Positions 25,621 through 64,000 of a DNA stretch of 64,000 nt are shown here, in pieces. Under the pieces are notes generated by a model. That model worked only from the letters and a program-made list of their open reading frames with translations. It was not told where the DNA came from and made no database searches. Position 1 is the first letter of the stretch, and the number at the start of each line of letters is the position of its first letter. Location: contig NZ_FPAF01000002.1 of the NCBI RefSeq assembly GCF_900116295.1, positions 162,472-226,471 on the forward strand, written 5' to 3'. A program made the position numbers and the translations under genes. Origin of the DNA: Bacillus sp. 103mf. Its GTDB lineage: Bacteria; Bacillota; Bacilli; Bacillales; Bacillaceae_G.

Positions 25621-26571
25621 ATGAAAAAACGTGTTTTACTATCTGTAGCGGCAGCAACTGCTCTTACATTTGGCCTAGGAACAAATGGTGCGAAAGCAGA
25701 AACAATCCAACCATCAACACCTAAAGTTCAAAATATTTCACATTCTCCATTATTTATGCAATATATGAATCAACAAGACTTTCAATCTTTCTTAACATCT
25801 CTTTTAAATTCATATGCAAAATGGAATGCCGGTGCTTTCCAACCAGGCAACTGTGTAATTCCTGGGCAACCGACTTACACAACAATTACAACTCCTTGGG
25901 GAAATATTGTAATTACAAACCCAGTTAATAACAATGAAACAACGAAACCAGAAGAAAAACCGGCTGATAACAACTCAGCAGCTAAGCCCGAAGAGAAACC
26001 GGTTGATAATAACAATCAACCAACTAAGCCAGCTGATAAGCCTGTTGATAACAACCAACCAACTAAGCCAGCTGATAAACCTGCTGATAAACCTGCTGAT
26101 AACAACCAAGCGACTAAGCCAGCTGATAAGCCTGTTGATAACAACCAACCAACTAAGCCAGCTGATAAGCCTGCCGAAGAATCAAAGGGTTCATTAAGCG
26201 CATTTGAACAAAAAGTTGTTGATTTAACAAATGCTGAACGTACAAAACAAGGTTTACCAGCATTAAAAGTAGACGCCCCGTTAAGCAAAGTGGCACGTGT
26301 TAAATCAGAAGATATGCAAAAAAATCATTACTTCGATCACACTAGCCCAACATACGGTTCTCCGTTTGATATGATGAAACAGTTTGGCATTTCATATAAA
26401 TCTGCTGGTGAAAATATTGCACAAGGACAACGTACTCCTGAAGAAGTTGTACAAGCTTGGATGAATAGTGCAGGTCACCGTGCAAATATTTTAAATAGCG
26501 GATACACACATATCGGTGTTGGTTACGTAGAAAACGGAAACTACTGGACACAAGAATTTATTTCAAAGTAA
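25621..26571 (+). CDS. Secreted CAP-domain (SCP-like) protein with Pro/Lys/Asn repeat linker
   Basis: The 316-residue protein has a signal peptide (MKKRVLLSVAAATALTFGLG, cleavage near AKA-ET), a short N-terminal region, then a linker of tandem KPADKPVDNNQPT-type units (residues about 103-190), and a C-terminal CAP domain. The CAP domain shows FEQKVVDLTNAERTKQGLP, the His/Glu positions in KNHYFDHTSPTYG, SAGENIAQGQRTPEEVVQAW and AGHRANILNSGYTHIGVGY. B. subtilis YkwD is the nearest well-known type. AGTAGGGGGA precedes the ATG. Function unknown, extracellular. Confidence 0.9.
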   Translation: MKKRVLLSVAAATALTFGLGTNGAKAETIQPSTPKVQNISHSPLFMQYMNQQDFQSFLTSLLNSYAKWNAGAFQPGNCVIPGQPTYTTITTPWGNIVITNPVNNNETTKPEEKPADNNSAAKPEEKPVDNNNQPTKPADKPVDNNQPTKPADKPADKPADNNQATKPADKPVDNNQPTKPADKPAEESKGSLSAFEQKVVDLTNAERTKQGLPALKVDAPLSKVARVKSEDMQKNHYFDHTSPTYGSPFDMMKQFGISYKSAGENIAQGQRTPEEVVQAWMNSAGHRANILNSGYTHIGVGYVENGNYWTQEFISK

Positions 26572-26627
26572 GACTTTAATCAATGGGGTAAAATAACAGT
26601 TTAAATAAAATTATCTAAAGTTACTCA

Positions 26628-26656
26628 AACCTATTCTATTTGAATAGGTTTTTATT
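26628..26656 (+). terminator. Terminator of CAP gene
   Basis: AACCTATTC-tatt-GAATAGGTTTTTAT. Confidence 0.8.
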
Positions 26657-26661
26657 TGTGG

Positions 26662-26911
26662 AAGTGAAATCGAACGAATTGTTATAAATAACAAAGATAG
26701 AATGATTCATTTTTGATTTGAAATGCCCCAACAAATTTGTACTATATATGATGTAAAAATTGAAATCATCAATCACACAGGAGATACAACTTATGAAGAA
26801 GAATTAGTAGAAGACATACTTTCTGTTATTACAGTTTTCAGTGCAAAATTGTATGGAAGTCGTTCTAAAAAAGCAAAAGAAATAAATGAATCTCTTCTTA
26901 AAGAAAAATAA
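26662..26911 (+). pseudogene. IS607-type serine recombinase (TnpA), C-terminal remnant with nonsense codon
   Basis: The frame EIERIVINNKDRMIHF, a TGA, then FEMPQQICTIYDVKIEII and EELVEDILSVITVFSAKLYG is the C-terminal third of an IS607-family TnpA. The expected Gly of RFGFE is TGA here. About two thirds of the gene, including the catalytic Ser region, is missing. The remnant begins almost directly after the CAP terminator. The element can no longer move by itself unless a TnpA acts in trans. Confidence 0.8.
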
Positions 26912-26932: not shown

Positions 26933-28369
26933 ATGGCACTGCTTACTTATAATAAAAAAATGGAAGTGGTGTTTTCAAAAGAAGATGAACTGATTTTAGA
27001 CGGTCAAAGTCGTATTTTAAATTGGTTATACAATCAATTGTTAACAACATGTAAAAAGGATTACGAAAACAACAATAATGAAAATCAATTTTTATATGAC
27101 CGTAATTTGCGAAATTATGTAACGAGAGTCATGAAAGAAAAATATCCATTTTTACAAACTGTGTTTTCTTCTCCTGTAAAAGAAGTGTCCGCTCGTTTAA
27201 AAGATGCGTTTACACGTTTATTTACAGGACAAAATCAATATCCCAATTACCGTAGTTGGAAGAAAAAATGGTACAGTTTATTTTTTGACGAACCAAACAA
27301 GGGATGGGAAATTAGAGAGAATAAGCTTCTGATTATGTTAGGGAAAATTTCTGACATGCCTAAAATCAAGGGAAAACATAACCCTGGCGTATTTGGTACA
27401 TTAAAAGAACCATTTTCATTACAAGAATATGAAACGATTCGAACTTGTCGTTTATGTAAACAACAAGGCGGTCGTTTTTATGTCATCCTCACCATCGAAA
27501 GAGGAAATGAAACCGACTTACAGTTTAAAGAGGAATTGAAACAATACAAAAAAGAAATCAAACAATACAATTACTTAAAAAAACAGGCAAAATCACAAGA
27601 AGAAAAAAAAGCTTTACCACAAAAACCAGTGAAACCTGTTCAAGAAATGAATGTACCCAAAGAGTCATGGATTTCTTTAGACCCTAACCATAAAAATTTC
27701 TTTGTAGGTGTGGATAACAAAGGTAATTCCATTGAATGGAGAAAAATACCACTTGTTAAATATTGGGATCGAAAAATCGATGAGTTGAAATCCCTTCGAG
27801 ATAAGTGTAAAAAAAATTATCGAAAACGAACGACGAAACATGGGAATCCATACACCGTATATAGTCCAAGATGGAATAAAATCAACAAAGCGTTAAATAA
27901 AGCGTATCATTGTCGCCGAGAACAAATGAAGACTACAATGTATACGATTGCGAATGAATTATATAAACAATATGATGTTGTCATTATGGGAGATTATGTA
28001 CCATCTAATGATACTGCTCCTTTGGATCACATGAAACGTAGTATGTTGAATCAAGAAGTCATCGGTTCGTTTCGTAAAATCCTAAAATGGGTAGCAGAAA
28101 AGAAAAACAAACACTTTTTCCTTGTTGACGAACGAGATACGACGAAAACATGTTGCGTATGCGGCCACAAAGAAAAGAAAGTACCATCAGTGCGTGTGTT
28201 TACTTGTGTGCCCTGTAAGACAACCTTAATGCGTGATAACAATGCTTCTGTGAACATCGCAAAAAAAGAACGGTTTTTCTTACAAGAAACATATTTCTCG
28301 AAATTAAGCACATTTACTCGTGCAGGATATGTACCTGTTGGACAAAAATGTGTCATCACAAACTTTTAA
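26933..28369 (+). CDS. tnpB: TnpB RNA-guided nuclease (IS607-associated)
   Basis: The intact 478-residue protein has an N-terminal helical/WED region, a RuvC-I motif SLDPNHKNFFVGVD (Asp near 249), a four-Cys zinc ribbon (CCVC near 406, CVPC near 426) and RuvC-III RDNNASVNIA (Asp near 435). The usual RuvC-II glutamate site reads VVIMGDYVP, so the Glu is absent; a Glu occurs later in VDERDTTKTC (near 400). AAAGGAGG precedes the ATG. TnpB proteins cut DNA under guidance of an RNA from the element's right end. Paired tnpA is a remnant. Confidence 0.9.
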   Translation: MALLTYNKKMEVVFSKEDELILDGQSRILNWLYNQLLTTCKKDYENNNNENQFLYDRNLRNYVTRVMKEKYPFLQTVFSSPVKEVSARLKDAFTRLFTGQNQYPNYRSWKKKWYSLFFDEPNKGWEIRENKLLIMLGKISDMPKIKGKHNPGVFGTLKEPFSLQEYETIRTCRLCKQQGGRFYVILTIERGNETDLQFKEELKQYKKEIKQYNYLKKQAKSQEEKKALPQKPVKPVQEMNVPKESWISLDPNHKNFFVGVDNKGNSIEWRKIPLVKYWDRKIDELKSLRDKCKKNYRKRTTKHGNPYTVYSPRWNKINKALNKAYHCRREQMKTTMYTIANELYKQYDVVIMGDYVPSNDTAPLDHMKRSMLNQEVIGSFRKILKWVAEKKNKHFFLVDERDTTKTCCVCGHKEKKVPSVRVFTCVPCKTTLMRDNNASVNIAKKERFFLQETYFSKLSTFTRAGYVPVGQKCVITNF

Positions 28370-28560
28370 TTTGCCTCGCTTAGGCAACGTACTTTTGTAC
28401 GTTTACTTTCTTCTTTTGGATTATTCTAAAAGAAACTGCTGTCTATACCCGTACATGATTTTGGTATGAGACAGGGAAAAGAATTCACTCCTATGTACAA
28501 AAAAACTTACTCATGGGTAAGTTTTGAGTAAGTTTGAGGAGATTTTTCAGAGCGGTTCTC
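28300..28560 (+). ncRNA. Predicted omega-RNA / right end of IS607-type element
   Basis: From the tnpB 3' end onward there is a run of hairpins: TTGCCT-cgctt-AGGCAA, CGTAC-tttt-GTACG, TTCTTTTG / TAAAAGAA, CTTACTCATGGGTAAG and GGAGA / TCTCC. TnpB guide RNAs come from exactly this place. The element's true right boundary and the guide start cannot be set without relatives; it probably lies between 28,500 and 28,577. Confidence 0.5.
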
Positions 28561-28577
28561 CCCATTGATTATTTTAA

Positions 28578-28722
28578 TTAAAAAACCGACATAAGACGGG
28601 CAAGAGCATCTGGCCGTGTATAGAAGCGGGCAGGACCTTTTTCTGCCACACGCAGGGTTTTAAAACAAAGGGAAAAAGCGAGTGCATGTCATGTTTTGCT
28701 TGGCATAACAGCGATTTATATA
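28578..28722 (+). repeat. Copy of second dispersed repeat family
   Basis: AAAACCGACATAAGACGGGC, GAGCATCTGGCCGTGTATAG, TTTTAAAACAAAGGGAAAAA, GGCATAACAGCGATTTATAT. It lacks the TGTCGAA end. Confidence 0.75.
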
Positions 28723-63931: not shown

Positions 63932-64000
63932 TTATAGCATGCCTGGGAAACCACCCATACCCATGCCTGGGAAACCACCCATACCCATGCCTGGGAAACC
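63932..64000 (-). CDS. Gly/Met/Phe/Pro repeat protein, C-terminal end (runs off right edge)
   Basis: The minus strand reads GFPGMGMGGFPGMGM repeats ending GFPGML and stop. Each unit is 24 bases (GFPGMGMG). Only 22 codons are visible. Such Gly-rich tails occur in Bacillus spore coat and surface proteins, but the gene cannot be named. Confidence 0.6.
   Translation of the reverse strand, partial: GFPGMGMGGFPGMGMGGFPGML

What the first reader, a model, noticed from the sequence alone, without database searches (positions are those of the whole stretch)
26933..28560. Stranded TnpB with a relocated RuvC glutamate and an adjacent structured RNA
TnpB is intact (478 aa) while its TnpA partner is a truncated, nonsense-bearing remnant. 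The canonical RuvC-II position reads VVIMGDYVP with no Glu; a Glu sits about 48 residues later in VDERDTTKTC, next to the zinc ribbon. A moved catalytic Glu is reported for Fanzor nucleases and close TnpB relatives. The 3' flank is a series of hairpins as expected for the guide RNA. An RNA-guided nuclease kept without its transposase could act as a domesticated or selfish-retention system.
Basis: partly seen in the sequence, partly recalled or inferred. Interest (0 to 1): 0.85.

Follow-up and report, generated by a model that had tools for sequence, protein, structure and literature searches.

The report
IS607 nuclease with shifted catalytic glutamate
A worn-out bacterial jumping gene still carries an intact gene for an RNA-guided DNA-cutting enzyme of a known but uncommon type, plus the RNA that would aim it at its own landing site; some relatives that lack the jumping enzyme seem to have put the cutter under a DNA-damage switch.

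Summary
Window 26933-28369 is an intact 478-aa TnpB beside a broken IS607-type tnpA remnant. D250, E400 and D435 are invariant, and the usual Glu position is Gly, in 20 of 20 rows aligned. E400 aligns with E467 of a solved Fanzor2. This is the published 'Ealt' arrangement, here with DPN instead of DPG at RuvC-I.
The element's ends can be placed: GGGG 26585-26588 and GAGCGG 28550-28555, guide from 28556. The joined flanks form a 12-bp hairpin, so the guide copies a terminator-like site behind the upstream gene. A pseudoknot in the 3' flank keeps 45 of 45 pairs over eight loci. 28576-28721 is a separate dispersed repeat.
Domestication is not shown. Lone tnpB occurs in 10 of 14 relatives examined; most copies found later have a TnpA match. 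No close strain and no structure were available.
New lead: one TnpA-less clade (7 of 7 copies, 5 genomes) has a LexA-like SOS box before tnpB; the window's element and tnpA-bearing copies lack it.

The parts
25621..26571 (+). upstream host gene (secreted CAP/SCP-like protein); a terminator-like hairpin behind it is split by the element
   Evidence: ORF; flank fold; protein name from recall
26585..26588 (+). GGGG at the left junction (exact crossover uncertain by 1-2 G)
   Evidence: left-end alignment; GGG or GGGG followed by ..ACAGTTTAA in multi-copy relatives
26589..26662 (+). left end of the element, with hairpin 26627-26651
   Evidence: 72-77% DNA match to the stretch before tnpB in L001-L005; hairpin
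26663..26911 (+). IS607-type tnpA remnant: C-terminal part only, in-frame stops
   Evidence: DNA match to the tnpA of L008 and L053; NF033518 positions 139-187; tblastn
26933..28369 (+). tnpB, 478 aa, RNA-guided endonuclease family
27680..27682 (+). codon of D250 (RuvC-I, DPNHKN)
   Evidence: invariant
28130..28132 (+). codon of E400 (alternative RuvC-II Glu)
   Evidence: invariant; aligns with E467 of 9b0l
28235..28237 (+). codon of D435 (RuvC-III)
   Evidence: invariant
28371..28387 (+). first hairpin after the tnpB stop (TTGCC...GGCAA), partly conserved
28441..28472 (+). right-end RNA stem (arms 28441-28449 / 28463-28472, 7 of 9 pairs in the window); its loop 28451-28456 pairs with 28493-28498
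28493..28498 (+). 3' strand of the pseudoknot (ATGTAC with GTACAT)
28503..28535 (+). repeats AAACTTACTCA / TGAGTAAGTTT near the right end, possibly recombinase sites (inferred)
   Evidence: similar motif at left ends
28550..28555 (+). conserved right terminus GAGCGG
28556..28575 (+). predicted guide, copied from the right flank of the insertion site (20 nt length assumed from other TnpBs)
   Evidence: sequence diverges between loci from here on

Best explanation
A decayed IS607-family insertion sequence. Its serine recombinase TnpA lacks its N-terminal part and has stops, so it cannot move itself. Its TnpB, an Ealt-type RNA-guided endonuclease with a D250-E400-D435 triad, is intact. Transcription through tnpB and the right end would give a right-end RNA with a pseudoknot scaffold ending at GAGCGG, followed by a guide copied from the flank. 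In the cell, TnpB would cut any copy of the locus that lacks the element (a sister chromosome after excision, or incoming DNA with the empty site), and repair from the occupied copy would keep or spread the element. Shown: intact gene, triad and its conservation, shared ends, scaffold covariation, guide equal to the flank. Inferred: expression, cutting, retention.
For: Family match. Triad, and Gly at the canonical position, in 20 of 20 rows. Residue alignment to Fanzor2 9b0l, E-value 1.9e-12. Ends shared with relatives, including 10 copies in one genome (G633) with different flanks. Pseudoknot 45 of 45 pairs Watson-Crick over 8 loci, with changes on both sides. Joined flanks give a 12-bp hairpin, -18.1 kcal/mol. 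Purifying selection between two tnpA-less relatives, dN/dS 0.154. TnpB of IS200/605 as a gene drive that keeps and spreads the IS: abstract of PMC11870625.
Against: No expression data, no structure, no close strain. The window's tnpB has no clear promoter: promoter-like hits (8) do not exceed shuffles (mean 9.1). The exact ends are blurred by the G run. Two relatives' tnpB carry a nonsense codon, so decay of lone copies does happen. The published work cited for the retention mechanism is on IS200/605, not on this branch.
Confidence: 0.8

Rival explanations
1. Inert relic: the whole element is dying, and tnpB is intact only because too little time has passed.
For: tnpA is broken; nonsense codons in the tnpB of L002 and L004; no promoter evidence.
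Against: Under 60% protein identity to every relative found, yet the motifs, both ends and the pseudoknot are intact.
Confidence: 0.3
2. Domesticated TnpB with a host function (regulation or defence).
For: TnpA loss; the lone copy sits in a terminator-like hairpin behind a gene.
Against: Ends and guide look like an ordinary insertion; the nuclease triad is intact, unlike nuclease-dead TnpB repressors (recalled); no re-aimed guide seen; such tnpBs are rare (3 of 397 genomes drawn from the order at E <= 1e-25).
Confidence: 0.08
3. E400 is not catalytic; D354 or another acid replaces the lost Glu.
For: D354 follows the canonical position and is nearly invariant.
Against: D354 is Asn in L011, while E400 is invariant in 20 of 20 and matches the published Ealt spacing.
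Confidence: 0.05

Closest known systems
Ealt TnpBs (Yoon et al. 2023, PMC10711439)
   Same: Glu six residues before the zinc-ribbon CxxC; IS607 TnpA partner in relatives; right-end RNA with a pseudoknot, as that paper shows for the IS607 TnpB of ISXfa1
   Different: RuvC-I reads DPN, neither DPG nor D-hydrophobic-G; the paper's two search patterns (DPG, D{P}G) would not catch it. Whether its HMM-based tree holds this branch was not checked
Fanzor2 / pro-Fanzor (e.g. mimivirus L79, 9b0l)
   Same: relocated Glu; aligned E467
   Different: no DPG motif; relatives here are mostly Bacillota, while pro-Fanzors are reported as cyanobacterial
ISFba1-type IS607 TnpB with RAGATH-18-derived RNA (PMC11061315, passages)
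   Same: IS607 TnpB, right-end RNA, G-rich target motif
   Different: reported triad D194-E290-D371 is spaced like the canonical Glu (my reading); no Rfam family reached its gathering score over the right-end RNA here

Membership tests
RNA-guided TnpB family (NF040570) | model score above cut-off | tested here: met
   132.6 vs 100 bits
RNA-guided TnpB family (NF040570) | D-E-D RuvC triad | tested here: met
   D250, E400 (Ealt), D435 invariant 20 of 20; by sequence only, no structure
RNA-guided TnpB family (NF040570) | RNA-guided cleavage | not testable with these tools
   needs an assay
IS607 element | IS607 TnpA partner | tested here: inconclusive
   remnant only in the window (48.2 of 110 bits); intact in relatives L008 and L084
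IS607 element | GG at both junctions, variable flanks | tested here: met
   window and relatives with both ends found; not found for the left ends of L006 and L007
IS607_TnpB NF038280 | score above the curated cut-off | tested here: not met
   40.6 vs 350 bits
Fanzor / pro-Fanzor | Ealt | tested here: met
Fanzor / pro-Fanzor | DPG at RuvC-I | tested here: not met
   DPN
CRISPR Cas12f | adjacent CRISPR array | tested here: not met
   direct repeats of 23 nt or more within 120 nt: only a coding repeat at 25923-26177 and one 24-nt tandem pair at 63938; PADLOC Cas12f models match weakly
Nuclease-dead TnpB repressor (TldR, recalled) | lost RuvC residues | tested here: not met
   triad intact

The most novel reading that the evidence does not exclude
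The window's element stands next to (support 86/39, unresolved) a clade of TnpA-less, tnpB-only elements in which the place of tnpA is taken by a LexA (SOS) operator, so that an RNA-guided nuclease is switched on by DNA damage. A self-targeting nuclease made only when recombination repair is induced would home into empty sites by cut-and-repair, with no transposase.
Probability: 0.45. Interest if true: 0.75.

Novelty: new variant of a known kind. Interest (0 to 1): 0.45.

Why it matters
It adds a DPN-type IS607 branch to the Ealt TnpBs, the stock from which Fanzors are thought to come, and gives ends, scaffold and guide for it. If the SOS operator of the TnpA-less sister clade is real, it would be the first case known to me of LexA-controlled RNA-guided cutting in a TnpB element, and would make the question of why TnpB persists without TnpA directly testable.

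Tried and rejected
Guide RNA reaching into 28576-28721: rejected, dispersed repeat with 6 other copies in the window and 7 matches in G011. It resembles the B. cereus-group bcr repeats by recall; no plasmid record matched it.

Stops in the tnpB of L002 and L004 as a shared regulated stop: rejected, different places.

tRNA-directed guide in L006/L007: the two copies lie at the same end of a tRNA array in two genera and share the first 14 letters after the right end, but no second copy of that stretch is in either locus; whole genomes were not searched for it; left open. L006's terminus is also altered (AAAGCAG).

Terminator hairpins as a general target: a hairpin is seen by folding at the window and by eye at L008 and L010; the other insertions listed were only looked at, not folded, and show no obvious one. 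Not claimed as a rule.

SOS box in the window: none.

Rfam: no match at gathering score over the right-end RNA; sub-threshold matches look like noise.

More copies of the TnpA-less clade: none in viral contigs by two single-protein scans; two distant hits with A1; none beyond G001 in 398 genomes drawn from the class at E <= 1e-40 that belong to this clade; none beyond G004 in its family, 22 genomes.

Sister strains: no whole genome for the window; the nearest genomes reached have at most 69% DNA identity over most of the neighbouring gene; no near match among plasmids.

Full report
What is there. The window holds an intact tnpB at 26933-28369, a guided_TnpB by NCBIfam (132.6 bits, cut-off 100) with the Cas12f1-like TNB domain of Pfam. 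Just upstream lies the C-terminal remnant of an IS607 transposase (48.2 bits, below the cut-off of 110), with in-frame stops when compared with the intact TnpAs of L008 and L084.

The glutamate. In A1 (11 rows) and in the 20-row set, D250, E400 and D435 are invariant and the canonical position is Gly. RuvC-I reads DPN in 19 of 20 (DQN in L085). L002 was left out of that set, L004 entered only as the part after its stop, and the fragments L012 and L086 were left out. E400 sits six residues before the zinc-ribbon CxxC, the published Ealt definition (PMC10711439: outline, passages, and sections 10, 23, 25, 26 seen). A profile of A1 finds mimivirus L79, 9b0l (E 1.9e-12), with E400 on its E467 and Gly at the canonical position in both. 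That 9b0l is a Fanzor2 and that E467 is catalytic there is recalled, not checked; two searches found no held paper on it. Three further loci with a TnpA match upstream (L136-L138; the fourth, L139, was not read properly) fit the published Ealt pattern and read DPNHKN. So the moved Glu is a family trait of a known kind, with a motif variant: DPN fits neither of the two patterns used in the published search.

Ends, RNA and guide. The stretch before tnpB in L001-L005 matches the window from GGGG 26585 on; right ends are conserved to GAGCGG (28555) and then diverge. Similar ends appear in multi-copy elements: in G633 10 copies (places), all 10 with a left-end and a right-end match; in G624 5 copies with a right-end match, and a left-end match of the right kind in one. 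The left ends of L006 and L007 were not found. Joining the window's flanks gives a 12-bp hairpin of -18.1 kcal/mol, so the element sits in a terminator-like hairpin behind the upstream gene and its guide copies that site. The crossover is uncertain by one or two G. Between tnpB and the end, eight loci share a stem whose loop pairs with a downstream strand: 45 of 45 pseudoknot pairs are Watson-Crick, with both-side changes (GTACAT/ATGTAC, TCACAC/GTGTGA, CGCAC/GTGCG, CCACAC/GTGTGG). The segments and pairs were picked by eye, the window's stem has 7 of 9 pairs, and some strands swapped between loci also pair well in the same call, so this is good but not blind evidence. A pseudoknot is required for another IS607 TnpB (PMC10711439, section 26). 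The repeat at 28576-28721 is unrelated.

Is it domesticated? Of 14 relatives, 10 have no TnpA match within 1200 nt, 2 have a broken one and 2 an intact one (the intact ones are the queries L008 and L084). Against this, 32 of the 40 locus rows of later searches show a TnpA match (rows overlap, several per copy), mostly from G633 and G624. So both lone and paired tnpBs are usual in this family. The lone copies L001 and L002 show purifying selection between them (dN/dS 0.154), yet L002 and L004 carry a nonsense codon each. For the window's own copy neither could be tested, as no close strain is held. An ordinary retention nuclease of a stranded element is the simplest reading (PMC11870625, abstract, on IS200/605).

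What the relatives add. All 7 tnpA-less copies L001-L007 (5 genomes; three copies are in one Niallia genome) have RAACnnnnGTTY 31-40 nt before tnpB, beside a TATAAT-like stretch in most (the -10 by eye). Chance per copy is 0.3-1.3% by shuffling, but the copies are kin and not independent. The letters differ between copies while the symmetry stays (GAACACGTGTTC, GAACAAACGTTC, AAACATATGTTT). A matrix from 8 sites before lexA in G001-G004 scores them 12.5-18.0; the 99th percentile of random 100-nt pieces is 11.2; the window, L008-L011, L054, L084 and L085 score at most 6.5 within 100 nt. The matrix sites were picked with the same core pattern, so the score is partly circular. Looser matches lie further up in L054 (-159) and L085 (-152). 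recA has an imperfect box in 3 of 4 genomes and none in G002 within 260 nt. Among the 40 rows, a box within 200 nt appears in 4, which are re-fetches of L001, L002, L003 and L005; no row with a TnpA match has it. L009, L011 and L085 lack both tnpA and box, so losing tnpA does not require the box. The clade is one group (99/99; one change in 100% of 200 bootstrap trees); the window lies just outside with weak support (86/39). Of the four held genomes of this clade, G002 and G004 have no IS607 TnpA over the cut-off, G001 has an intact one and G003 a 102-aa piece. Paper searches on TnpB with LexA/SOS (listings only, 15 of 19 and 4 of 4 shown) gave no title or abstract start describing LexA control of tnpB; one listed paper (PMC2806898) reports radiation-triggered transposition of a Deinococcus IS, so a link of such elements with DNA damage has a precedent.

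Verdict. The more surprising lead is the SOS-like operator in the sister clade, which needs an experiment.

Noticed in passing
L001-L007, 31-40 nt upstream of tnpB: LexA-like box (RAACnnnnGTTY) in 7 of 7 TnpA-less tnpB elements, absent from the window's element and from tnpA-bearing relatives examined.
   Followed up: yes
L006:3956-6649 and L007:3959-6751: tnpB copies (63% identical) at the same end of a 15-tRNA array in two genera, sharing the first 14 letters after the right end.
   Followed up: partly
   Followed up: partly
window 25923-26177: In-frame repeats (spacing 39-42 and 12 nt) in the CAP/SCP-like secreted protein.
   Followed up: no
window 26627-26651: Terminator-like hairpin inside the element's left end, similar by eye in L001-L005; may shield the element from outside transcription.
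   Followed up: no
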